DNA from: Halorubrum persicum
Lineage (GTDB): Archaea > Halobacteriota > Halobacteria > Halobacteriales > Haloferacaceae
DNA length: 34,287 nt
NCBI RefSeq assembly: GCF_002727125.1
Contig: NZ_NHOA01000048.1
Location: 1-34,287, forward strand
Direction: 5' to 3'
Positions 10,751-26,851 of this stretch are shown piece by piece. The stretch's first letter is position 1. Each line of letters opens with the position of its first letter. Under the pieces are notes generated by a model, which was not told where the DNA came from, did not search any database, and was given only the letters and a program-made list of their open reading frames with translations. Position numbers and translations under genes: made by a program.

Positions 10751-11079
10751 GCCGGAGACGGCGGGGGGCCGAACGAGTCCGAAACGAGCGCTCGCCTCCC
10801 TCGCGCTCCGGGGTCGAACCGCTGTGACAGTAACGCCTTGCGAGTTCGTTCGTCGCAGAATACCCTCGGCGGTGACATTCTACATTTTAAATGTTAAATC
10901 GAATCCGCCTGGAGTTCGGTCCGCTGTTCGTTTACGTAAGCAGAACGTTTGTCGCTGAACTCACATCCCCCTGAGGAAACTCAGATTCCGCTCCTCGACA
11001 CGTATCTGATTACCGCAACTGCTGTCCACAATATGATCGGCACCCGCAATTTAATCAGGGTACTACTGTATTCCAGAGT
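10751..11079. other. Intergenic junction at the left end of the restriction island
   Basis: No gene is visible in these 329 bases. The first 100 are GC-rich like the chromosome; from about 10860 the DNA becomes clearly more AT-rich and stays so through the McrBC genes. A perfect small inverted repeat, ACATTT-T-AAATGT (10882-10894), is present. The composition break near 10860 probably marks the island edge. Confidence 0.5.
11048..11056 (+). promoter_or_regulatory. TATA box for mcrB
   Basis: AATTTAATC is 24-32 bases before the ATG at 11080, fitting leaderless transcription of the mcrBC operon. Confidence 0.6.
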
Positions 11080-13758
11080 ATGGTCCTCGACGACCCCGAG
11101 GAGATAATCCGGGTGTGGGATTCGTACGCTGACGCCGAATTTCGCTATGCAAGCACTGACGGAACGATTCACGACCACGGGGAACAGAATTCGAAGCGCC
11201 GAGAGCAGCTTCCCACTCGGCGTGACATTCTTCATCGGTTTCTTGACCGTGAGATAGACCTCGAAACGTTCCGGAGCGAAATGGTGAGTGCGGAGGCCAG
11301 TAACCGGCTATGGGGGTTCAGCGGTACTAGTGGCGGGATGTTTCTGAACATGCTCATTTCAACGGCAGAACCCGACCACGAGCCGGAACTACCGGCGCTA
11401 CTCAGAGAGCTTCTCATCGCACCTGAGGATACAAACGCTGCCAGTGAGAAAATTCGGAGACTAGAGCAACGGGTCGAGGCTATCCGTTCTAACATAGACA
11501 ACGTCCAGAAAGCACCGCATGCTGGCTCAATTCCGTATTTTCTCTCGTACTTTTGGCAACTGCAGGAGCCTGATTCGTTCCCAATATACTACAAATCGAT
11601 CCGTGATGCGCTATCGGACCTCGATATATGGGAGCCGAGTGGGGACCTTGCTGAGGACTACGTCGAATTCTGGGAACTGAATGAGGAAATTCGCGAGACT
11701 ATTGAAGATCACACTGGGAAGGAGATTCACTTGTGGGGCATCGAACGCCTGTGCCTTTATTGGCTCAATAAGGAACAGATAGACAAGCCAGATACAACGC
11801 AGTTCTTCTGGATTAACTCCGCCAGCACAGGATGGTATCAGGAGGGCGGCGAGACGTTCTACAAAACCACCCAGACTGACGGGACGGAACGACGCAATAT
11901 CGAGGCCTACAACCAAGCTCAGCCCGGCGATCAAGTCCTTGTCTACCGAAATGCTCCACGGAGAGCAATCGTCGGAAAGGCGCACGTTACAGAAGGACTC
12001 CACGAGGAGTATGTCGAATCATACGACGGTCCAGCCGAAGGGATCACGATCGCATGGGACCGCTCACTCGAAGGGGTCGGGTGGGACAGTATTACAACTC
12101 TCCCGCAACTCGAAGGCAACCCTGTCGTCGAATCAAACAACCCGTACGTAGTCACCGAGCTTTCGGAGGATGCTTATAACACACTACTACGCCTCGCTGA
12201 GGCGGGAGGGCCGAACCACTACTGGGTGACCTCAAACCATCGGCAGTGGGACGTTCAGTCGATGGGCAAAGGCGAGGAGGTTTTTTACACCGCCACTAGC
12301 AAAGCTGGGAGCCCCCGGAACCAACAGGAGGCCTTCGAAACTGCCGGGGCAGGTGATCGCGTGCTGTTCTACGCGTCATCGCCAACGAGCGCCCTCGTTG
12401 GCGAAGGAACAGTTGTTGAGGGATTACACACAGAGCAGCCCGAAGGTTACGAGGGACCAGTCGAAGGCGTCACCATTCGCTACGATGGGTCGGTCGGGCC
12501 GTTGGACTGGAGTACGGTCGAGTCCGTGCCGGAAATGGCTGATTCTGTGGTTATCCGAACGAACGGGCGGGGAGCGATCTTCCCGCTCCCCGAGGAGGCG
12601 TTCGAGGCGCTTCGGCACCGAAACCCGATCGAAGACCAGATCGAATCCCTGCGAGGACGGTTATCCCAGCTATCAGTCTCAGTTCATCTGCCCGATGAGC
12701 TTTATTTCGAGTCGGAAGCCGAGCTCCAGCGGCAGATACAGGCATCACTAAACTCTGGAAAGCACATCATCTTCACCGGACCACCCGGAACGGGAAAGAC
12801 AAAGTTAGCAAAACACGTCTGCGAGCACGTTGCGGCTGCACAAGGGGAAATCGTGGACGGGTATCGGTTTACCACGGCAACAGCCGAATGGACGACCTTC
12901 GATACCATTGGTGGATACGTGCCGAACCGAACAGCAGAGGGGGATGAGCTGGTATTCCAGCCACGAATCTTCCTCGACTGTTTCCGGCGAGATGGAGAGA
13001 TCAGGAACGAGTGGCTGGTGATCGACGAAATCAACCGCTCCGATATCGACAAGGCGTTCGGGCAGCTGTTTTCGGTTCTCTCAGGCGACTCGGTGCAGCT
13101 CCCGTACGAACGCGATGACCCGGTCGAAATCGCTTCACTCGATGAGTCCGCCTCGGCAGAACGCCTGGAGTCCATCGTCACAACCCCGGACATCTTCCCC
13201 GTTACTCCTTCGTGGCGTCTCCTAGCCACGATGAACACCTACGACAAGACGTCGCTATACGAGCTTTCGTACGCGTTCATGCGCCGCTTCAACTTCGTCC
13301 ACGTCGGGGTTCCTCCGCTCGAAGAAGACGGGAAAGTTCGGACCTCACTGTTGGACCCGAACGGAGACGAGAACTATGCCACAGCGTGGGTCAAGGCCGA
13401 CGAGTCGCTACGAGACGTACTAGAGACAGCGTACAAACAGACTGCCGTGGTCTGGCACAAAGTGAACCAACACCAGACCATCGGCCCGTCCATTGTTCGC
13501 GATCTCCTTGGGTACCTCGCGGCAGCGGGCCCAGACGTATCCACTGACCCCGGTCCGGCACTCACTGACGCAGTCGTAGCGCTGGTGTTCCCGCAGCTCG
13601 AGGGGATGGCCCCACAGGCACAGCGCAGTCTCGTCGACTCCTTGACCGCAACCAGCGTTCAGACTGAAGCGGGGCCGGTTGACCTCACCTTGGATGGAGA
13701 TCGCCTCGAGCGGAAGGCTGAGGACTTCTTCGACCTCCCACCGCGCGCCGATGAGTAA
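11080..13758 (+). CDS. McrB-type AAA+ restriction protein with tandem EVE domains
   Basis: An 892-residue, multi-domain protein. Residues 1-240 are a mainly helical N-terminal region (FLSYFWQLQEPDSFPIYY, DYVEFWELNEEIRETIEDH) that I cannot name. Two EVE-domain repeats follow: FFWINSASTGWY from residue 242 and HYWVTSNHRQWD from residue 380. Each ends with a GDQVLVYRNAP/GDRVLFYASSP strand and a matching VTEGLHEE/VVEGLHTE segment. EVE and the related YTH and PUA-like domains read modified bases. The AAA+ domain has Walker A GPPGTGKT (567-574), the ATAEWTTFDTIGGYVP segment, Walker B VIDEIN (647-652) and the McrB sensor motif ATMNTYDKTSLYELSYAFMRRF with Asn719. This is the motor subunit of a type IV, modification-dependent restriction complex. 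It overlaps its nuclease gene by 8 bases, and the DNA is visibly more AT-rich than its surroundings. Confidence 0.9.
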   Translation: MVLDDPEEIIRVWDSYADAEFRYASTDGTIHDHGEQNSKRREQLPTRRDILHRFLDREIDLETFRSEMVSAEASNRLWGFSGTSGGMFLNMLISTAEPDHEPELPALLRELLIAPEDTNAASEKIRRLEQRVEAIRSNIDNVQKAPHAGSIPYFLSYFWQLQEPDSFPIYYKSIRDALSDLDIWEPSGDLAEDYVEFWELNEEIRETIEDHTGKEIHLWGIERLCLYWLNKEQIDKPDTTQFFWINSASTGWYQEGGETFYKTTQTDGTERRNIEAYNQAQPGDQVLVYRNAPRRAIVGKAHVTEGLHEEYVESYDGPAEGITIAWDRSLEGVGWDSITTLPQLEGNPVVESNNPYVVTELSEDAYNTLLRLAEAGGPNHYWVTSNHRQWDVQSMGKGEEVFYTATSKAGSPRNQQEAFETAGAGDRVLFYASSPTSALVGEGTVVEGLHTEQPEGYEGPVEGVTIRYDGSVGPLDWSTVESVPEMADSVVIRTNGRGAIFPLPEEAFEALRHRNPIEDQIESLRGRLSQLSVSVHLPDELYFESEAELQRQIQASLNSGKHIIFTGPPGTGKTKLAKHVCEHVAAAQGEIVDGYRFTTATAEWTTFDTIGGYVPNRTAEGDELVFQPRIFLDCFRRDGEIRNEWLVIDEINRSDIDKAFGQLFSVLSGDSVQLPYERDDPVEIASLDESASAERLESIVTTPDIFPVTPSWRLLATMNTYDKTSLYELSYAFMRRFNFVHVGVPPLEEDGKVRTSLLDPNGDENYATAWVKADESLRDVLETAYKQTAVVWHKVNQHQTIGPSIVRDLLGYLAAAGPDVSTDPGPALTDAVVALVFPQLEGMAPQAQRSLVDSLTATSVQTEAGPVDLTLDGDRLERKAEDFFDLPPRADE

Positions 13759-15082
13759 GTTGGGGCGACAAGCGCTGGTTGATGGCGTCCAACAGGAGCT
13801 GGTCACATATCTACAGAACGGGACGGTCAATGATCGGGCCGTCGCACAGTGGCTCGACATAACCGACCTGAACATCGAAAAACTCGATCGACTCAAGCGG
13901 ATCCATTTCTGTCTCAGCGACGGCGTCGTCAAGTTCGTAGCGCAGCTCCAGGAACGACTCCGCCGTGTTAAGACCGCCAACCAGCGCGAGCGCGAGGTCA
14001 CGCGAGGGGAAGTCCGTGGTGCAGTCGATTGGCCGGCGACAACGCGGCTCAGATACGCAGATCAGTCCGGTGACCGGACGAAGTTTGCCTGCAAGACGCC
14101 GTATACCGAGTACGACATCGACCAGAATCTGGTCCTCAAGAAGCTGCTTTGGACGATTCACTCCACGGTGGAGGAGGACATCGCTGCCATCGCGTACGAC
14201 TGGCGAGCGGACGCCTGGTCAGACGAACAGATCGCAGCATTCGACCGAACATACGCCAGGAATGTCCACTTGAGTCGTATCCGTGACGGAGCTGATATCC
14301 GCGTCACCTCCCGAATGCTCAACACGGCCCGGCGGTCGCGGCAGGCGCTGTACACCGACGCATTCACCCTTTATGATAGGTACCGGCGCTTACTGTCTGG
14401 AGCGTATGATGACCCGGACATCTCGCAGCTGCTATCGGACACACTTGTGGTGCCTGAACGTCTCCCGCGGCTCTTCGAACTCTTCTGTGTGTTCCGGCTG
14501 CTACGCGGGCTTCGCTCGCAGGCGTTCCAGCTCCAACCCATCGAGACGGGGGCCAGTCAGTTAGCCATCCTCCAGGACAAGGACCACACCGTTAATGTCT
14601 ATCACGACCGAACCGGCAGCCTCTCGTTCCACGTTCCGCTATCCGAACTCGATGGCGTGGAGGCAGACTACGCCGAGCGTGTCAGAAACGCCCAGAACCA
14701 GCACCAGCAGCTGACCAAGGCGTTTCTTGGCAATAGCACTACCCCCTCACTGTTCCACGGGCGGCCTGATCTCGTGATCGAAGTCTACGATGGGGAAGCT
14801 AAAGGAGCACCTGAAGCGGTCGTTCTCGGCGAAATCAAGTACAGCGACAGACAGCAGACGTTCACACGGGGACTCGAAGAGCTGCTGAAGTACATGGAGT
14901 TCGCACAGAAGGATGATTACGGATATTTATCTGAGCAAAATACAGAGGTTCTTGGACTACTGATAACGGACGCCGTCGAAGTAAACGACGACTCCCCAGC
15001 CGGTGGGCAAGTTACTCACATTTCTGCACAGGACTTCCTCACCGGCAACGTCCCGAGAGACTGGATCCCGGAGTCAATATGA
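13751..15082 (+). CDS. McrC-type PD-(D/E)XK nuclease subunit
   Basis: A 443-residue protein with the start at ATG 13751, inside the last codons of mcrB (8-base overlap), so the two are co-translated. The C-terminal nuclease core shows the PD-(D/E)XK signature: Asp340 in RPDLVIEVYD, then Glu361 and Lys363 in GEIKYSD, followed by a helix (GLEELLKYMEFAQ). The preceding 330 residues are mostly helical with an SRMLNTARRSRQALYTDAF segment and LFELFCVFRLLRGL, as in McrC/DUF2357-type proteins. It would assemble on the McrB hexamer and cut DNA on translocation. It is longer than E. coli McrC (348 residues), so the N-terminal part may carry an extra contact domain. A hairpin follows 12 bases after the stop. 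Confidence 0.85.
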   Translation: MSKLGRQALVDGVQQELVTYLQNGTVNDRAVAQWLDITDLNIEKLDRLKRIHFCLSDGVVKFVAQLQERLRRVKTANQREREVTRGEVRGAVDWPATTRLRYADQSGDRTKFACKTPYTEYDIDQNLVLKKLLWTIHSTVEEDIAAIAYDWRADAWSDEQIAAFDRTYARNVHLSRIRDGADIRVTSRMLNTARRSRQALYTDAFTLYDRYRRLLSGAYDDPDISQLLSDTLVVPERLPRLFELFCVFRLLRGLRSQAFQLQPIETGASQLAILQDKDHTVNVYHDRTGSLSFHVPLSELDGVEADYAERVRNAQNQHQQLTKAFLGNSTTPSLFHGRPDLVIEVYDGEAKGAPEAVVLGEIKYSDRQQTFTRGLEELLKYMEFAQKDDYGYLSEQNTEVLGLLITDAVEVNDDSPAGGQVTHISAQDFLTGNVPRDWIPESI

Positions 15083-15094
15083 TAAAACAAACTA

Positions 15095-15114
15095 CAGGCG
15101 GATAAATTCGCCTG
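15095..15114 (+). terminator. Hairpin after the mcrBC operon
   Basis: CAGGCG and CGCCTG form a perfect 6-base stem around an 8-base AT-rich loop. No T-run follows directly, so termination is plausible but not certain. Confidence 0.35.
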
Positions 15115-15402
15115 ACATTCATCTATCATAATCGGAATAACGACTGATCGACTCACCGATGGTTTTGACGGGTTCTCTTGGAACGCTCCCCGCAACCCTG
15201 ACCGGTGTTTATCGCATTCAATCTTGACCGGCGGGCCCGATGACGAAACAAGTACGCCGGGTAGACGAGTATTAAACGTCAATCCTCCTCGAACCGGTCG
15301 CTTACCCGCTTGGGAGCAGCACCCACCGACGTAGCCCTGGCGCCGGTCCTGGTCTGCCCGAGATCGGCAGGCGATGCTGAAGGATTCTGAACTCCGAGTA
15401 AG
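15115..15402. other. Non-coding gap between mcrC and tRNA-Gln
   Basis: I see no gene here. On the minus strand a frame runs from the tRNA 3' end to a stop at 15279-15281 and would end in KRVSDRFEED, which looks like a protein C-terminus, but it has no start codon of its own. It may be a remnant of a gene cut by island insertion, or chance. Confidence 0.35.
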
Positions 15403-15475
15403 TAGTCCCGGGCGGATTCGAACCGCCGTCAATGGCTCCAAAGGCCATTATGATTGGCCACTACACCACGGGACT
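15403..15475 (-). tRNA. tRNA-Gln (anticodon UUG)
   Basis: A 73-base cloverleaf. Acceptor arms AGTCCCG / CGGGACT pair fully and the discriminator is A. The anticodon stem ATGGC/GCCAT encloses loop CTTTGGA, giving anticodon TTG. The T-arm GGCGG-TTCGAAT-CCGCC is canonical. There is no intron and no encoded CCA. Weakness lies only in the D stem, with a G-T and a T-T apposition. The restriction island begins directly beyond the 3' end, the usual side for tRNA-targeted integration. Confidence 0.93.
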
Positions 15476-17865: not shown

Positions 17866-19029
17866 TCACCTGTATATCTCGCGGAGGATGCGGCGGTGGA
17901 GCGGTGGTTTCGCGCGCGATTCCCGAGACCGGATCCGCGCGGGCTCGCCCCGGAGCAGCAGCACGCCGAGCCCGACGATCCCGCCGCCGAGGAGGCCGTT
18001 TATCGCGACCAGCGGAGCCCACGGGTGGACGCCGTACAGTTCGTCGATCACGCTCGATGGCAACACGGCGAGGTACCGGTGTTCGGTGACGAACAGCCGG
18101 TAGTATCCCGTCTCGTCGGGCGCATTGAGCGTCACCGTCGTCGACGCCTCGCCCCGGCTCCCCACGGTGACGCGCCGGGGGTCGACGTCGACGCCCGGGC
18201 TCTGCGGAGTGACGTACGCGTACACCGGGACCAGCCCGGCGTTGGGGACGACGTACTCCAGCTCTTTGCTCGTGCCCCGCTCGATGACGGTCGGGTTATC
18301 GGACTCGAACTCGGCGCTCACGACGCCGTACTCCTGTGACCCCGCCGGAACGACCATCGCCGCGGTCGCGGTCGCCATCAGCACCAGCGCCAGCACGCCG
18401 ACGATCGCGAACACCGAGGTGCCGTCGTCGCGGGAGCGGTCGCGTTCCCGCGTCTCGCGGCTCCCCCTGTCGAGGTACCAGTCGACGGCGTACGCGACCG
18501 ACGAGAGCGCGAAGAGGATGTACGCGAGCCCCTGCGTGCCCTGCAGCGACCGGACTCCGAACGTGACCGCCAGCCACGTCTGGACGGAGTCGAGCGCCGA
18601 CTGGAACCCCATCGCCACGGTGCCGAGGTGCGGGATGACGACCACGCTCCCTCCGACCGTGGCCGCCTTCGCGACGATGTCGGCCTCCTGCACGACGGGC
18701 TCGCCGCCGTCCTGATCGGTGAACGGGTTGTTGTCCCCGCGCGTGATGTACCCGCGCTCCGTCTCCTCGACGACGCGGTGGGTCGTCAGCCCGCCGCCTT
18801 GGATCTCCTGGGCGTTGAACGTCACCACGTCGCCGGCGCCGACCCCGCCGGCGAGCGGCGCGGGGATCGCGACGAACCCGTCGCCGGGGTTGAGCACCGG
18901 CTGCATGCTGCCCGTCTCGACGTAGCTCAGAAGCACCGGCTGGCCGAGGTACTGCCCGACGATCAGCGAGGCGACGACCAGCACGGCTGTGACCTGCAGC
19001 GTTATCGAAATGGTGCGTTTGAGGGACAT
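17866..19029 (-). CDS. Type I signal peptidase (S26, SipW-like) with C-terminal extension
   Basis: A 387-residue membrane peptidase. A membrane helix at residues 10-30 is followed by the active-site serine in ETGSMQPVL (Ser41), the archaeal general-base histidine in THRVV (His84) and the conserved RGDNN (Asp99). The Ser-His arrangement is the ER/archaeal (S26B) type, shared with Bacillus SipW. Beyond the usual core of about 190 residues are two more membrane helices (about 206-228 and 345-366) with a beta-rich extracytoplasmic domain of roughly 110 residues between them, resembling the C-terminal modules of specialised haloarchaeal peptidases. It heads an operon with DUF5305. The best TATA box is about 100 bases upstream, implying a leader of some 75 bases. 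Confidence 0.9.
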   Translation of the reverse strand: MSLKRTISITLQVTAVLVVASLIVGQYLGQPVLLSYVETGSMQPVLNPGDGFVAIPAPLAGGVGAGDVVTFNAQEIQGGGLTTHRVVEETERGYITRGDNNPFTDQDGGEPVVQEADIVAKAATVGGSVVVIPHLGTVAMGFQSALDSVQTWLAVTFGVRSLQGTQGLAYILFALSSVAYAVDWYLDRGSRETRERDRSRDDGTSVFAIVGVLALVLMATATAAMVVPAGSQEYGVVSAEFESDNPTVIERGTSKELEYVVPNAGLVPVYAYVTPQSPGVDVDPRRVTVGSRGEASTTVTLNAPDETGYYRLFVTEHRYLAVLPSSVIDELYGVHPWAPLVAINGLLGGGIVGLGVLLLRGEPARIRSRESRAKPPLHRRILREIYR

Positions 19030-21859: not shown

Positions 21860-22405
21860 TCATTCCTCTACTGCCTTTGCGATGATGCCGATATTTTCAT
21901 TGTATTCTTTCACACCTTCATCAGCTGTTTTTATATACAACCCGATGGTGAACGAATCGCCAGGATCTAGTACCACGCCAGTACTTTCCGATTGTAATAT
22001 CGCAGATGTCTGTCCACTTTTATATATGGCAAGTTCATCCAATTCGCCACTGTAGTCACTGTAAACAGTGACCGAATTTGTCCCCTGATTCTGGAGAACT
22101 GCCATATTATCGAACCAGTACTGCGACTGGTTCCCGATGCCATTGGGATCGGTTCCAGCGACAAGGTCGTCCTCTGGCCCTGGAATTCTGAACGTTGCTA
22201 CGTGCACACCGTCTCCGAGATTAACATCACTAGATCGACCAGCGATCCCAACATCAGTGTTAATCCGAAGATAGGCCTGACTGTCATCAACAATCTTTGC
22301 TGTGACACTACGCTCTGCTCGGGTGCTGGAGAATGCACCGGTCCCAACAGTCAGGGAACCAGCTAACAGACCGCCAGTAGCACCAAGCAGGCGTCTTCGT
22401 TTCAT
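21860..22405 (-). CDS. Small exported DUF1102 protein (SipW-type signal region)
   Basis: A 181-residue exported protein. The N-terminus MKRRRLLGATGG has a twin-arginine-like RRRLL followed by a hydrophobic stretch and GTGAFSSTRAER, which is shared with two other proteins in this cluster. After it comes a single beta-rich domain beginning VTAKIVDDSQAYLRI, typical of DUF1102. The pattern of a short signal, a GAFS-type cleavage region and one beta sandwich resembles TasA/camelysin proteins, which SipW peptidases process. It is the second gene of an operon (12 bases after the upstream DUF1102 gene). The DNA is visibly more AT-rich than the flanking genes, a sign of separate ancestry. Confidence 0.8.
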   Translation of the reverse strand: MKRRRLLGATGGLLAGSLTVGTGAFSSTRAERSVTAKIVDDSQAYLRINTDVGIAGRSSDVNLGDGVHVATFRIPGPEDDLVAGTDPNGIGNQSQYWFDNMAVLQNQGTNSVTVYSDYSGELDELAIYKSGQTSAILQSESTGVVLDPGDSFTIGLYIKTADEGVKEYNENIGIIAKAVEE

Positions 22406-22417
22406 TAGCTAGAATTG

Positions 22418-23077
22418 TTAGCTACTGCTGAAGTCTGAACCGTCTTCACTGGAACCATCAGCGTAGAATCCAATGTCGTCGGGAACGTCCGAAAGTGAAG
22501 TCGACGCGGTACTTCCCAGCGATTGAATGTCTCCGTTTAGGTAGAATCCGAAGTGAACATAGAGATCGTCACCCGGTGCGAGGTCCTGACTAGCCACGTC
22601 GGCACTGTTACTCCAATGAGAGGGAACGGATGGTACCGCAGCGAACGGAGTACTGTCCGCCAACGCGTCTGAAGTTAGTTCGTTATCCGTGTACGAAACT
22701 ACCATGGGTCCGTCTGGGAGAATGCCGATTGCAGAAGTCCCATTATCATCATCACCGAGTTGGAGTCGAACGGTGTTCGTGCCGTTGTTTTCAATCCTCA
22801 TCACGTTAGTAAAGGTCGTGTCTGCGTTGGCATTCAGACCGTTCCCATTCTGATTACTATTGCTGCCATCAAACTGGAGCTCGAGAGTGTCGCCAGTCTC
22901 TTTCGCGTACACACTCGTAGAGGCATCTAAGCCGAGGTACGCGCCAGAGTCACCAGCAGTACTGACATTGATAGCACGTTCCGCGCGAACGCTTGAGAAC
23001 GCGCCCGTACCCATTGCAGCCGCACTACCCGTAGCCAATGCGCCCAGACCGGCGATGAACTTGCGTCGGTTTGCCAT
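22418..23077 (-). CDS. Small exported DUF1102 protein (SipW-type signal region)
   Basis: A 219-residue protein with the start at ATG 23077 (an in-frame ATG at 23257 would add 60 residues of non-family, Arg/Trp-rich sequence across the intergenic repeats). The signal MANRRKFIAGLGALATG contains RRKFI, a good haloarchaeal Tat motif, and leads to GTGAFSSVRAER. The mature part starts INVSTAGDSGAYLGLD and is a Ser/Asn/Asp-rich beta domain with a Ser-rich tail (DGSSEDGSDFSSS). It is the first gene of a two-gene operon with another DUF1102 gene and is divergent from the winged-helix regulator. The coding DNA is AT-rich compared with its neighbours. Confidence 0.82.
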   Translation of the reverse strand: MANRRKFIAGLGALATGSAAAMGTGAFSSVRAERAINVSTAGDSGAYLGLDASTSVYAKETGDTLELQFDGSNSNQNGNGLNANADTTFTNVMRIENNGTNTVRLQLGDDDNGTSAIGILPDGPMVVSYTDNELTSDALADSTPFAAVPSVPSHWSNSADVASQDLAPGDDLYVHFGFYLNGDIQSLGSTASTSLSDVPDDIGFYADGSSEDGSDFSSS

Positions 23078-23543
23078 AGTTGTGTAACCTCGTTGTCCGC
23101 ACACGACCCGCGGGCCGTCGACGACGGGACATCCCGCCTCACCCGAGGTCGCTCTATGACACCCATGGGGCCTATCCCATATCGTTATGAATTTCCAGAA
23201 ACACTTCTGGGAGCGGCTGAACAGTCGACGGGTGGGTTCCGCCCTTGCCTGAACCACGATCCGAACGGTTCAGGTGCAGCCTGAGACCTCCAGAACCCCT
23301 GTTCAGGAGGGGCTTGAACCGGCAACGATTGCTGAGAGAGAATGTTCCATACGTGATAACTACCGAAGCACGGCGAACGTGATATCTTGAGTGGTGAGAA
23401 CTATACTGCGTTATCACGCCCTCTTCCGCCGGAATACGGCCACAAACGCGTCCGAATCGGCCTCCGTCTCAACGGCGAGAAAGTTTGTCTGAGTATCATA
23501 ACCACGGGATTTATGTTGGCGTGTTCATATTTGTCAGACAGAT
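23078..23543. other. Divergent regulatory region with a cluster of inverted repeats
   Basis: No gene is seen in these 466 bases between the DUF1102 operon and the regulator. It holds CCAGAA-ACAC-TTCTGG (23195-23210), CCTGAACC/GGTTCAGG with an 11-base spacer (23248-23274) and a 10-base arm pair CCTCCAGAAC/GTTCAGGAGG around CCCT (23287-23310, one mismatch). The recurring half-site is CTGAAC. A further CTTGAACCGG occurs at 23313-23322. Confidence 0.6.
23509..23517 (+). promoter_or_regulatory. TATA box for the winged-helix regulator
   Basis: ATTTATGTT lies 27-35 bases before the ATG at 23544. Confidence 0.5.
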
Positions 23544-24125
23544 ATGGCGTCGGTACAACAGGTAGACGGGGGAGGGTCTGAACCGGCGACGGAGGTGTCC
23601 GAGGACGAGCTGTTCGAGGTGTTGGCGAATCAGCGCAGGCGCTTCGCGGTCCATCTGTTGAAGCGCGAGGAGCCCGACTCGATCGCGATCGGGGACATGG
23701 CCGAGCAGATCGCGGCTTGGGAGAACGGGATCGAAACGGCGGAGATCACCGGGGCCGAGCGCAAGCGCGTGTACACCGCGCTTCAGCAGTCGCACCTGCC
23801 GAAGATGGACAACGTGGGCGTCGTCGACTTCAACAAGGACCGCGGGGTCGTCGAACCGACGCCCGCGCTGCAGAACGTCGACCTCTACATGGACGTCGTC
23901 GAGGGGAGGGAGATCCCCTGGAGCACGTACTATCTGGGGATCTCCGGGGTGGCCGTCGCGCTCACCGGCGCTGTGTGGCTCGACGCGTGGCCGTTCGTTC
24001 TCCTGTCCGACATGGCGTGGATGATCGCGATCGTCGTGGCGTTTACCTTCTCCGCGATCACCCACAAGTACTACACCGCGGAGATGAAGGTCGGCGAACC
24101 CGAGGAACCCCCGGAATTGACGTAG
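23544..24125 (+). CDS. Membrane-tethered winged-helix regulator (DUF7344-like)
   Basis: A 193-residue protein. Residues about 20-110 form a winged helix: ELFEVLANQRRRFAVHLLKREE, then IAIGDMAEQIAAWENG, then the recognition region AERKRVYTALQQSHLPKMDNVGVVDFNKDRG. This is the pattern of the haloarchaeal DUF7344 family. Two membrane helices follow at about 130-150 and 153-173, with a short acidic tail, so the DNA-binding part faces the cytoplasm from the membrane. Its position between DUF1102 genes, on the other side of an array of inverted repeats, makes it the likely regulator of this surface cluster. It may sense envelope state directly; the effector is unknown. Confidence 0.8.
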   Translation: MASVQQVDGGGSEPATEVSEDELFEVLANQRRRFAVHLLKREEPDSIAIGDMAEQIAAWENGIETAEITGAERKRVYTALQQSHLPKMDNVGVVDFNKDRGVVEPTPALQNVDLYMDVVEGREIPWSTYYLGISGVAVALTGAVWLDAWPFVLLSDMAWMIAIVVAFTFSAITHKYYTAEMKVGEPEEPPELT

Positions 24126-24227
24126 GGCGCCGGGTTTCAAGCGGCGCTTTCGGCGGTTCCGGGAGCGCATAACCTTAGGGTCGGAACACGTATTCCACGA
24201 CGAACGAAACGTGACCTCGCACTCATA

Positions 24228-24971
24228 ATGAAACGACGACACGCCATCCTCCTGCTCGGCGGTGCGAGCTCCGGCGCGATGAGCATCGGCACCGGCGCGT
24301 TCAGCAGCGTCGAGGCCGAGCGCGGCGTGGAGGTGAACGTCGTCGACGACGACGAGGCGTATCTGGGGCTACAGCAAGTGAATCGCTACCTTCCGACCGG
24401 CTCTAACACTCAACTGACCGAGCCGGGAGACTACCAGCCGAATGATGTCGTCCAAATAAAAAACCAGTTCTCTGACCCGCTTGATCTGACGGTGAACGTC
24501 TCTAAAGCAGCGGGCGTCGTCAGTGACGGTGATATCCGCGTCGACGAGCCACTCAAAGACGGCAACAAACTGGGAATCGGCGATGACGCGTTCGTCGCCG
24601 TCACGTGTGGAGACAGCGGGAATGGACAACTGACACTGTCGCTTGACGGCACCGCCGGCGGTGCCACTGTCGAGGTGACTCGGCAGTTTGCGGTGTCGTG
24701 TCTCGACGTCAGGTTCAATGGAAATAACGGAAATGCCGTGGTTGAGGGCGTGTTTACTGACCTCCCCGTGACTGTCGTGTTCGAGAGCGGCACAGAAGAA
24801 GAGAGAACCATCTCGTCGAACTCGAACAGTGGGACCGGAGCCGCGGAATCGAACGAGGGGGCTGCAAATACGAACAGACAGGCCGTTCTTCACCCACGAA
24901 ACGGCGGAGAAGGCGGAAATGACGCAATCGAACAAGTCGTAATCTCTGAGACGGTGTTCAAGCGGTCATAG
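24228..24971 (+). CDS. Exported DUF1102-type protein, third paralogue
   Basis: A 247-residue exported protein. The signal MKRRHAILLLGGASSG leads to GTGAFSSVEAERGVEVNVV and DDDEAYLGL, closely matching the two paralogues on the other strand. Its Arg pair (RRHAI) is a weaker Tat motif. From about residue 48 the sequence diverges, with a beta-rich body, one pair of cysteines (VTCGDSG, VSCLDVR) that may form a disulfide, and a Ser/Asn/Gly-rich region before a short C-terminal strand. The base composition also changes at the same point, from GC-rich to more AT-rich, suggesting a mosaic gene. It has a 102-base gap after the regulator, in the same direction. Confidence 0.78.
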   Translation: MKRRHAILLLGGASSGAMSIGTGAFSSVEAERGVEVNVVDDDEAYLGLQQVNRYLPTGSNTQLTEPGDYQPNDVVQIKNQFSDPLDLTVNVSKAAGVVSDGDIRVDEPLKDGNKLGIGDDAFVAVTCGDSGNGQLTLSLDGTAGGATVEVTRQFAVSCLDVRFNGNNGNAVVEGVFTDLPVTVVFESGTEEERTISSNSNSGTGAAESNEGAANTNRQAVLHPRNGGEGGNDAIEQVVISETVFKRS

Positions 24972-25340: not shown

Positions 25341-25628
25341 TCAGTCGTCGCCCGGGCGATACGCTCCCGACCGGTGTTCGATGTCGTAGATACGCGGCGT
25401 CTTGCTCTCGCGATCGGCGTCGGCTCCGAGTCGGAAGTCGCCGATTCGGATCTTACCGTGCGGGACGCCCGACGGGGGTTCGATGTACGCCGACGGATCG
25501 CACCACTCGTCGGTGACGATCTCGTCGAGTTTCGACAAGGTACGTCGCTGTGTCGGCGTGTCCAAGTTCTCGAACGTCCGGGCGGCGGGAGGACGAAACT
25601 TCCACGTCCAGTCGTCACGCGTCGTCAT
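25341..25628 (-). CDS. RelE/ParE-family toxin
   Basis: A 95-residue protein with the RelE/ParE fold pattern: WTWKFRPPAARTFENLDTPTQ at the start, a helix (RRTLSKLDEIV), then the strands KIRIGDFRLGADAD and PRIYDIEHRSGAYR with the conserved basic residues. Family members are ribosome-dependent mRNA interferases or gyrase poisons. Here the Lys/Arg-containing strands and YDIEHRSGAYR end favour the RelE branch. Its start lies inside the antitoxin gene (14-base overlap), typical for a type II pair with the antitoxin first. Confidence 0.82.
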   Translation of the reverse strand: MTTRDDWTWKFRPPAARTFENLDTPTQRRTLSKLDEIVTDEWCDPSAYIEPPSGVPHGKIRIGDFRLGADADRESKTPRIYDIEHRSGAYRPGDD

Positions 25629-25905
25629 CGATCAGATCGACGACTTCCTCGCGGGAGACGGCCTCGCTCTCACCGTTCCGCATGGCGTACTCCTCGGTGG
25701 CGATGCTCGCGAGTATCTCGCGCGACGCACCGGGATGATCCGTCGCGTCCCGAATCGCGTGTCGAAGGAACTCGCTCCGCGAGGTGTATCCCTCCTCTTT
25801 CCAGACCGCGTCGATCTCCGCCAGCTGTCGTTCGGTGACGCGAATATTGATCGTCGTCGTCTCGGGATCGTCGATGTTGCCGCCGTTCGTACCTGTTTCA
25901 GACAT
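25615..25905 (-). CDS. Ribbon-helix-helix antitoxin
   Basis: A 96-residue antitoxin with the start taken at ATG 25905 (MSETGTNGG), since a TATA box GTTATATAAATA (25926-25937) fits a leaderless start; an ATG at 25920 is too close to that box. Residues about 17-58 form a ribbon-helix-helix DNA-binding domain (TTINIRVTERQLAEIDAVWKEEGYTSRSEFLRHAI). The acidic C-terminus (EEVVDLIDDDA) is the likely toxin-neutralising part. It precedes and overlaps the RelE-type toxin gene, and palindromes over its start are probable operators for autoregulation. Confidence 0.82.
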   Translation of the reverse strand: MSETGTNGGNIDDPETTTINIRVTERQLAEIDAVWKEEGYTSRSEFLRHAIRDATDHPGASREILASIATEEYAMRNGESEAVSREEVVDLIDDDA

Positions 25906-25923
25906 ACGTATGTATTGCATACG
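25902..25923. promoter_or_regulatory. Operator palindromes of the RHH/RelE operon
   Basis: ACATACGTATGT (25902-25913) is a perfect 12-base palindrome overlapping the antitoxin start, and CGTATG-TATTG-CATACG (25907-25923) is a perfect inverted repeat. RHH antitoxins bind such paired sites. Confidence 0.6.
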
Positions 25924-26042: not shown

Positions 26043-26333
26043 ATGCCCACCATCTCGACGCGAGTCCCCGATGACCTCGAAGCGGAACTCGAAGCCTACC
26101 TCGACGAGGAGCGCCTCGACCGGAGTACGGCGGTCCGAAAGCTCCTCTCGGAGGGGCTCGAAGCGTGGCGACGCGAGCGCGCGCTCGAACGCTTCGCCGA
26201 CGGCGACGTTTCTCTCATAAAGGCCGCCGAACTCGCGGAGGTATCGGTGTGGGAGTTCGCGCGCCTCGCCGAGGAGGCCGACGACGCGTGGGTGTCCGGT
26301 GACCACCTCGAAGCCGACCTCGACGAGCTGTGA
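26043..26333 (+). CDS. UPF0175-type antitoxin with RHH N-terminus
   Basis: A 96-residue protein. The N-terminal part TISTRVPDDLEAELEAYLDEERLDRSTAVRKLLSEGL is a ribbon-helix-helix. The C-terminal part (ERFADGDVSLIKAAELAEVSVWEFARLAEEAD) is the helix-turn-helix-like UPF0175 segment. In archaea this family is usually the antitoxin of a PIN-like DUF3368 nuclease, which is exactly what follows, with a 4-base overlap (GTGA). It is divergent from the RHH/RelE pair. Confidence 0.85.
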   Translation: MPTISTRVPDDLEAELEAYLDEERLDRSTAVRKLLSEGLEAWRRERALERFADGDVSLIKAAELAEVSVWEFARLAEEADDAWVSGDHLEADLDEL

Positions 26334-26851
26334 GCTGGGTCTTCGACGCGACACCGCTGATCTATCTCGCGAAGGCGGAACGGCTCGGCGTGATCGAGAC
26401 GCTGGACGAGCCGCGAGTCGTCCCGGAGGCCGTCCACCGCGAAGTGGTTACGGCCGGCGTCGAGCAGGGGTACGACGACGCGCGTCGGATCGAGCGCGCC
26501 GTGGAGGAGGGCCTCGTCGACGTCGTCGCGGTCGACACCGACGACTCGCCGGTCGCGACGCGACTCGCGCGCCATCCGGGGTTGAGCGACGCCGACGCCG
26601 CGGTCCTGACCTGCGCGGCCGCCCGCGACGCGGTCGCCGTGATGGACGAGTCGGCCGGACGCTCCGCGGCCGAAGTAGAGGACGTCGAGACGCGGGGGAC
26701 CGCGTACCTCGTCCTCGCCGCCGTGCAGGACGGGCACCTGTCCACGCCGGAGGGACGTGACGCCATCGACGCGATGATCGATCACGGCTGGTACGTGGCG
26801 CCGGACGTGTACACGAAGATCGTCGGGACGTTGGAATCGCTCGGGGACTGA
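26330..26851 (+). CDS. PIN-like (DUF3368) ribonuclease toxin
   Basis: A 173-residue PIN-domain protein with a GTG start at 26330 that overlaps the antitoxin stop. The acidic active-site set is visible: Asp6 in VFDATPLIYLAKA, Glu in PEAVHREVV, the LSDADAAVLTCAA segment and the AVMDES Asp. PIN toxins cut RNA, often tRNA or rRNA loops, when the antitoxin is lost. DUF3368 proteins are typical partners of UPF0175. The length is normal and no residue of the site appears lost, so the module may be active. Confidence 0.85.
   Translation: MSWVFDATPLIYLAKAERLGVIETLDEPRVVPEAVHREVVTAGVEQGYDDARRIERAVEEGLVDVVAVDTDDSPVATRLARHPGLSDADAAVLTCAAARDAVAVMDESAGRSAAEVEDVETRGTAYLVLAAVQDGHLSTPEGRDAIDAMIDHGWYVAPDVYTKIVGTLESLGD

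What the first reader, a model, noticed from the sequence alone, without database searches (positions are those of the whole stretch)
11080..15082. Tandem-EVE McrB with McrC: a modification-sensing defence pair
The McrB-like protein carries two EVE domains in a row and a large unnamed N-terminal helical region, and its nuclease is encoded with an 8-base overlap. EVE domains read modified bases, so two readers could recognise two marks or a doubly modified site. EVE-McrB proteins are known in archaea, but the function of this tandem form and of the N-terminal region is open.
Basis: partly seen in the sequence, partly recalled or inferred. Interest (0 to 1): 0.62.

Follow-up and report, generated by a model that had tools for sequence, protein, structure and literature searches.

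The report
Three-part DNA reader on archaeal McrBC
A salt-loving archaeon carries a two-gene system that probably cuts foreign DNA bearing chemically altered bases; its sensor protein has two EVE reader domains plus a swappable front module that also occurs, in other archaea and in bacteria, joined to FokI-type DNA-cutting domains.

Summary
Window 11080-13758 encodes an 892-residue McrB-type AAA+ protein with two EVE domains (residues 240-376 and 378-518, 35% identical). Window 13751-15082, overlapping by 8 bases, encodes a diverged McrC with an invariant PD...ExK motif. The pair lies in a low-GC island that a related genome lacks, and it is under purifying selection (dN/dS 0.13 and 0.09). The best reading is a McrBC-type, modification-sensing (Type IV) restriction system.

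The N-terminal region is not unique. It is an unnamed module with no Pfam, NCBIfam, PADLOC or PDB sequence match. It recurs in haloarchaea, methanogens and many bacterial phyla, mostly fused to a FokI-type cleavage domain, often inside restriction-modification operons, and sometimes joined directly to McrB without EVE. In sister systems the motor stays 67-84% identical while this module is replaced, twice by the MrcB_N type (the methylcytosine reader). Its confident model most resembles HhH DNA glycosylases (best Z 8.3, within the tool's caution range), but the catalytic Lys and Asp are missing in all 30 relatives. I read it as a third, swappable DNA-reading module. Cage residues and targets remain open. 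New variant of a known kind.

The parts
11080..13758 (+). McrB-type protein P0001, 892 aa: N-module, EVE1, EVE2, AAA+ GTPase-like motor
11080..11799 (+). N-module, residues 1-240: helical, HhH-glycosylase-like fold; exchangeable; elsewhere fused to FokI-type cleavage domains
11797..12207 (+). EVE1, residues 240-376; nearest solved folds VcaM4I EVE and PH1033 (Z 12.4 each)
12211..12633 (+). EVE2, residues 378-518; nearest solved folds are canonical EVE proteins (Z 15-16)
12763..13290 (+). AAA_5 core of the McrB motor (residues 562-737): Walker A GPPGTGKT, Walker B LVIDEINR, signature MNTYD (NxxD)
   Evidence: motif definition PMC11090510
13751..15082 (+). Diverged McrC, 443 aa
13751..13758 (+). 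8-base overlap of the two genes (atgagtaa)
14759..14839 (+). PD-(D/E)xK catalytic segment of McrC: G337-R-P-D340 ... E361-I-K363, invariant in 25 relatives
11050..11056 (+). TTTAATC, possible archaeal TATA element about 30 nt before the ATG (leaderless start; inference from sequence only)
10776..15399 (.). Inserted segment: in the related genome G097 the flanks are only about 78 bp apart; GC about 0.53-0.60 in 11-15 kb against about 0.65-0.75 in the flanks

Best explanation
A horizontally acquired McrBC-type (Type IV) restriction system. McrB should assemble as a ring motor (known for McrB, inferred here). Its N-terminal half is a string of three DNA-reading domains: an exchangeable helical N-module with a glycosylase-like fold, and two EVE domains that hold flipped-out modified bases. 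When the readers find a modified base on incoming DNA, GTP-driven translocation with McrC, the PD-(D/E)xK nuclease, cuts the DNA. The two EVE domains and the motor form a constant core, and the N-module is the part exchanged between lineages to change or sharpen what is recognised. Shown: domain anatomy and predicted folds, motif conservation, module exchange, island insertion, purifying selection. Inferred: modification sensing, DNA as target, the reading role of the N-module, cleavage.
For: Motor: AAA_5 match, hits to E. coli McrB structures and the NxxD signature MNTYD, which marks the conventional branch. McrC: invariant PD...ExK in 25 relatives and collinearity with canonical McrC. Two EVE folds at Z 16 and 12.4; solved relatives THYN1 and VcaM4I bind 5mC DNA. 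Module exchange: among tandem-EVE relatives the motor is 92, 84, 80, 79, 79 and 67% identical, but only one (G198) keeps this N-module; G286 carries MrcB_N (PF12102, E 3e-31) in its place, the domain that reads methylcytosine in E. coli McrB, and G216 carries a homologue of it. The N-module elsewhere is fused to a FokI-type cleavage domain (PF09254 above cut-off in L058) or directly to McrB without EVE (L042, L050). Island: GC dip, empty site in G097, CTAG only in low-GC stretches. Selection: dN/dS 0.12 (N), 0.11 (EVE1), 0.18 (EVE2), 0.11 (motor), 0.09 (McrC).
Against: No activity is known for any member and no modified target is identified. Cage mapping is incomplete: one of the two classical pocket positions of 2eve falls in a loop that EVE2 lacks. 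McrC is too diverged for Pfam, and its profile match to canonical McrC is only 43% probable. The N-module's glycosylase-like fold rests on Z 8.3 with Foldseek E about 0.2 and no sequence-profile support. Carriers of the tandem-EVE core show no shortage of host C5 or N4/N6 methylases.
Confidence: 0.68

Rival explanations
1. Only one EVE domain reads a base (EVE2, the more canonical); EVE1 and the N-module are spacers or contacts for ring assembly, so the tandem adds no second mark.
For: EVE2 matches canonical EVE proteins at Z 15-16 while EVE1 reaches 12.4; single-EVE relatives retain the EVE2-like copy next to the motor; the exchangeable N-terminal modules suggest loose constraint there.
Against: EVE1 is under equal purifying selection (dN/dS 0.11) and keeps many invariant aromatic residues in all seven tandem proteins (W244, W252, F260, Y261, W326, W335).
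Confidence: 0.3
2. The N-module is not a reader: it is a dimerisation or nuclease-contact domain, or an active lyase/glycosylase with unusual catalytic residues, and specificity rests on the EVE domains alone.
For: No DNA-bound relative is known; the fold match is modest (Z 8.3); constant residues of the family (R40, G79, N90, S156, W159, Y170, Y194, E222) could form an unrecognised active site.
Against: It is the sole N-terminal module before the McrB motor in L042 and before FokI-type cleavage domains in many phyla, the place where the recognition domain sits in FokI and in McrB; it is exchanged against MrcB_N, a known reader.
Confidence: 0.25
3. An RNA- or translation-directed system like the CoCoNuT branch of McrBC rather than a DNA restriction system.
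For: EVE/YTH domains also read RNA, and YTH-like readers occur in CoCoNuTs (PMC11090510).
Against: The GTPase carries NxxD, not the NxD motif of that branch; there are no coiled-coil or extra RNA-binding domains found; CoCoNuTs are nearly absent from archaea (PMC11090510); the nuclease motif is intact.
Confidence: 0.07
4. A sequence-directed restriction enzyme whose host protection comes from a methylase elsewhere in the genome, rather than a modification-dependent one.
For: FokI-fused relatives of the N-module often lie in Type I or III operons next to methylases; the host has a Dam-like methylase.
Against: No methylase lies in the island, and the host lacks PF00145 and PF01555 methylases; other N-module/FokI genes have housekeeping neighbours in the flanks checked (L062, L055); EVE domains are modification readers in the restriction enzymes studied so far.
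Confidence: 0.08

Closest known systems
EVE-McrB / McrC systems (Bell et al. 2020, PMC7641849; McrBC census PMC11090510)
   Same: EVE fused to the N-terminal side of an NxxD McrB motor, with a PD-(D/E)xK McrC encoded next to it; EVE-McrB is the commonest defence architecture with EVE.
   Different: Two EVE copies in a row and the N-module, which is not described in the parts of these papers that I read; McrC is too diverged for Pfam.
E. coli K-12 McrBC
   Same: Motor and nuclease partners; operon order McrB then McrC.
   Different: Reader is DUF3578/MrcB_N (ADAM) in E. coli; here EVE-EVE plus the N-module. Two sister haloarchaeal systems use MrcB_N or a homologue in the same position.
Thermococcus gammatolerans and Staphylothermus marinus McrB N-terminal domains
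   Same: Archaeal McrB with a PUA/YTH-type reader; the S. marinus domain (6n0s) matches EVE1 at Z 9.0.
   Different: Single reader; no N-module (from general knowledge of these structures).
VcaM4I (EVE-HNH endonuclease, PMC7897488)
   Same: EVE fold as modified-base sensor; nearest solved restriction enzyme to EVE1 (6yex, Z 12.4).
   Different: HNH nuclease in the same chain, no motor; pocket residues W82/Y130 could not be placed on EVE1 or EVE2.
FokI and related cleavage-domain enzymes (PF09254)
   Same: Relatives of the N-module carry this nuclease domain at the C-terminus, the arrangement of FokI (recognition first, cleavage second).
   Different: The window protein has no such nuclease; the N-module has no sequence match to any solved protein, FokI included.
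HhH DNA glycosylases (archaeal Ogg2, OGG1, MagIII, EndoIII, MutY) and the related DUF2419
   Same: Overall fold of the N-module by VIA-align (Z 8.3, 7.0, 6.5, then 5.4-4.6), spanning residues 4-232.
   Different: No Lys at the nucleophile position and no Asp at the general-base position in 30 relatives; no significant profile-profile match.

Membership tests
McrBC (Type IV restriction) | McrB-type AAA+ motor with Walker A, Walker B and NxxD signature | tested here: met
   GPPGTGKT, LVIDEINR, MNTYD; AAA_5 E 4e-13; phmmer to E. coli McrB 2.6e-7
McrBC (Type IV restriction) | McrC partner with N-terminal DUF2357 region and PD-(D/E)xK nuclease | tested here: inconclusive
   Nuclease motif invariant in 25; collinear with canonical McrC at 43% probability; DUF2357 only weakly in 2 of 25 relatives and McrBC PF10117 in 3 of 25, none significant
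McrBC (Type IV restriction) | Specificity domain fused N-terminal to the motor; two-gene operon | tested here: met
   EVE-EVE before AAA; genes overlap by 8 bases
McrBC (Type IV restriction) | Cleavage of modified DNA, GTP-dependent | not testable with these tools
   needs expression and assay
EVE domain (PF01878) | Sequence match above cut-off and EVE/PUA-like barrel | tested here: met
   PF01878 E 1.1e-10, two stretches; Z 15-16 for copy 2, 12.4 for copy 1
EVE domain (PF01878) | Aromatic pocket for a flipped modified base (2eve W26/Y82; VcaM4I W82/Y130) | tested here: inconclusive
   EVE2: W26 -> F402, Y82 lies in a loop absent here; residue-level superposition was not available
HhH DNA glycosylase | Helical two-domain HhH-GPD fold | tested here: inconclusive
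   all of the top 14 VIA entries are HhH glycosylases or DUF2419, best Z 8.3; Foldseek E only 0.2-5; hhalign not significant
HhH DNA glycosylase | Catalytic Asp, and Lys in bifunctional enzymes (OGG1 K249/D268) | tested here: not met
   aligned by motif: I/V/A at 151 and Y at 170 in 30 of 30; no K at 150-153; D at 168-173 in only one relative (position 172). The register rests on motif spacing, not on a superposition
CoCoNuT branch of McrBC | NxD motif, coiled coils and RNA-binding domains | tested here: not met
   NxxD present; domain set is N-module, EVE, EVE, AAA

The most novel reading that the evidence does not exclude
The N-module is a new class of base reader: a DNA-glycosylase fold that has lost its catalytic residues and been turned into an exchangeable modification sensor for restriction enzymes (McrB motors and FokI-type nucleases) across archaea and bacteria. 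Together with two EVE domains it would make a three-pocket reader on one McrB.
Probability: 0.35. Interest if true: 0.78.

Novelty: new variant of a known kind. Interest (0 to 1): 0.55.

Why it matters
Modification readers decide which viral DNA a Type IV enzyme can attack, and they are useful as tools for finding modified bases. The N-module is an undescribed family with a clear modular role, present in Halobacteria, a methanogen, Heimdallarchaeota and several bacterial phyla (Chloroflexi, Planctomycetes, Verrucomicrobia and others). It comes in a form ready for testing: a compact 460-residue fusion with a FokI-type cleavage domain. If it is a dead glycosylase used as a base sensor, it shows how repair enzymes can be turned into immune receptors. 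The constant-core, swapped-module pattern also gives a natural experiment for matching reader modules to targets.

Tried and rejected
tRNA-Gln as an attachment site: no convincing direct repeat links the tRNA (15402-15475) with the other junction, so the insertion mechanism is unknown. Viral carriers: scans of IMG/VR with N-module and tandem-EVE profiles found no relative, and the viral structure library gave only E above 0.3. Brig1/Brig3 antiviral glycosylases: described as related to uracil-DNA glycosylases, so not the same fold family. Pfam OGG (PF21790) as a bridge: only short weak matches in haloarchaea, not used. Profile comparison of the N-module with archaeal Ogg2 and with the helical modules of other EVE-McrBs: not significant. 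Host methylases as a signature of reader target: no association of the tandem-EVE core with presence or absence of PF01555 or PF00145 methylases (6/7 against 364/391 and 2/7 against 188/391); with seven carriers the test is weak. Tandem EVE outside Halobacteria: none in a sample of 247 genomes of the phylum, only single EVE matches. Sigma-70 promoter scan: not applicable to archaea.
Full report
What is there. Window 11080-13758 encodes an 892-residue protein and 13751-15082 a 443-residue protein. The stop of the first and the start of the second overlap by 8 bases. The first protein has an EVE domain above the Pfam cut-off, in two stretches, and an AAA_5 motor; phmmer finds E. coli McrB structures. 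The sequence shows Walker A (GPPGTGKT), Walker B (LVIDEINR) and MNTYD, the NxxD signature that the McrBC census assigns to the conventional branch (PMC11090510).

The EVE pair. The two EVE domains are 35% identical to each other. An AlphaFold2 model of both (pLDDT 81.6) matches solved EVE proteins: copy 2 (residues 378-518) at Z 15-16 with 2ar1, 2gbs, 1zce, 2eve and THYN1 on 5mC DNA; copy 1 (240-376) at Z 12.4 with VcaM4I and PH1033, then YTH domains and the S. marinus McrB reader. By profile alignment W26 of 2eve falls on F402 in EVE2, and the loop with Y82 (W82 in VcaM4I) is missing. Many aromatic residues are invariant in both copies, but without coordinates I cannot say which line a pocket. 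The claim of two marks is open.

The nuclease. McrC has no significant Pfam hit. In an alignment of 25 haloarchaeal partners, G337-R-P-D340 and E361-x-K363 are invariant. Profile comparison with canonical haloarchaeal McrC aligns most of the length in register with the PD-(D/E)xK motif, at modest probability (43%, pairwise E 2.5e-4). I take it as a diverged McrC.

The N-terminal module. Residues 1-240 match nothing in Pfam, PADLOC, NCBIfam (whole-protein searches) or PDB sequences. In genomes they are far from unique. In a sample of 391 Halobacteria genomes the module turns up in about eleven other places, mostly proteins of about 460 residues. A scan of GTDB genomes gave 22 loci, among them Chloroflexi, Geomonas, Planctomycetes, Verrucomicrobia, Humidesulfovibrio, Zixibacteria, Methanoflexus and Heimdallarchaeota; the pattern-limited scan is a lower bound. 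Nearly all show a C-terminal domain of the FokI-cleavage kind (PF09254 tested in three: E 1.4e-6 above cut-off in L058, 3.4e-5 in L048, 0.0023 in L033; the others share the aligned PDG...DAK motif by eye). In bacteria these genes sit between or beside hsdS and hsdM (L058, L057, L060), next to a Type III-like helicase and a PD-(D/E)xK gene (L059) or beside an N4/N6 methylase (L049), while others lie beside housekeeping genes (L062, L055). In L042 and L050 the module is joined directly to a McrB motor without EVE, and in L041 to a McrB that lies beside a canonical McrC.

Its fold. With 30 sequences AlphaFold2 gives a confident model (pLDDT 90.4, pTM 0.89). Foldseek finds nothing significant (best E 0.2) but the top ranks are DUF2419 and 8-oxoguanine glycosylases. 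VIA-align gives MjOgg Z 8.3 (148 residues, 4.8 A), then 7.0 and 6.5 for further Ogg2 structures, and 5.4 to 4.6 for DUF2419, SsOgg, MagIII, EndoIII, MutY and mouse OGG1; the first fourteen entries all belong to this group. DUF2419 is itself described as similar to 8-oxoguanine glycosylases (PMC11592518). The tool warns that Z below about 13 can be chance for helical proteins; the consistency across separate glycosylase families is the argument, and profile comparison does not support it. In the segment corresponding by motif to the HhH and catalytic loop (GSIPYFLSYFWQLQEPDSFPIYY against [25 protein letters not shown]) the catalytic Lys position is I/V/A and the Asp position is Tyr in all 30 sequences. 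My reading is a glycosylase-like fold without glycosylase chemistry. The register is by motif spacing, so it is an inference.

Exchange of modules. Seven of 391 Halobacteria genomes carry the tandem-EVE core. Against the window, motor identity is 92, 84, 80, 79, 79 and 67%, and McrC 89, 75, 67, 68, 66 and 58%, but only G198 (the Halorubrum salipaludis locus L043) has the same N-module. G286 has MrcB_N, E 3e-31, and G216 has a homologue of that domain; G215, G270 and G265 have other modules. This is the strongest evidence that the N-module reads DNA. Other haloarchaeal EVE-McrBs have further PUA-like domains in arrays, as far as can be seen by eye, so the tandem form is one member of a series.

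The island. GC falls from about 0.65-0.75 in the flanks to 0.53-0.60 across the genes. In G097 the flanks are about 78 bp apart; in four other Halorubrum genomes the same interval holds what looks by eye like a Mrp/Mnh antiporter operon. CTAG, which haloarchaea avoid (PMC6471742), occurs 9 times in the window against 49 expected, and all 9 lie in the two low-GC stretches, five of them in mcrB. dN/dS against G198 is 0.13 for McrB and 0.09 for McrC, so both genes are maintained.

The host. It has no PF00145 or PF01555 methylase in a 98%-complete assembly but has a Dam-like PF02086 gene, so GATC-6mA is an unlikely target if that gene is active. Across carriers of the tandem core there is no association with either methylase family. 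A second McrBC lies elsewhere in the genome.

How it most likely works. Inferred from McrBC biology: a McrB ring meets DNA with three reader domains per subunit, holds a modified base, hydrolyses GTP, and with McrC cuts the DNA. The readers could act together to require two features before cutting, which would lower self-damage, or each widen the range. Neither is shown. Rivals are one working EVE only, a non-reading N-module, an RNA-directed system, and a sequence-directed enzyme; the last two have clear evidence against them.

Novelty. EVE-McrB is known (PMC7641849). The tandem form, its constant-core and swapped-module evolution, and the N-module with its FokI fusions were not found in the papers I could read; absence from this library is not proof. 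I rate it a new variant of a known kind, with an undescribed module as its most interesting part.

Noticed in passing
L057, L058, L060 (also L059, L049, L045): N-module/FokI-type nucleases lodged inside or beside Type I or III restriction-modification operons, between or after hsdS and hsdM; possibly guard or back-up nucleases. No family model names them.
   Followed up: partly
window 15402-15475: tRNA-Gln here and in G065 lacks a 77-base insert that five other Halorubrum genomes (L078-L082) appear to have in the anticodon region of the same gene (probably an archaeal tRNA intron): a difference in intron presence between close relatives.
   Followed up: partly
window 11327-13423 and 21967-22593: CTAG occurs 9 times in the whole window against 49 expected, and all 9 lie in the two low-GC stretches: a cheap marker for recently acquired DNA in haloarchaea.
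   Followed up: partly
interval between window 10775 and 15400; L077, L078, L081, L082: In four related genomes this interval holds what looks by eye like a Mrp/Mnh antiporter operon; it is absent here, in G198 and in G097.
   Followed up: no
own genome C52:73421-75267 (L002, L128): A second, more canonical McrBC pair, with a further MethyltransfD12-like match nearby at C52:81908.
   Followed up: no
L007, L010, L012, L014, L018: Other haloarchaeal EVE-McrBs have arrays of PUA-like domains and a helical module with the motif LhP..YPIhN; two such helical groups are related to each other (hhalign 91%) but not detectably to the window's N-module.
   Followed up: partly
window 25615-25920 and 26330-26851: Short ribbon-helix-helix-like gene and a PIN-like gene that look like parts of a VapBC-type pair, though on opposite strands (by eye).
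   Followed up: no
window 21860-24971: Second low-GC stretch with several small secreted proteins of one type (MKRR...GTGAFSS...AER), some kilobases from a signal-peptidase-like gene at 17866-19029 (by eye).
   Followed up: no
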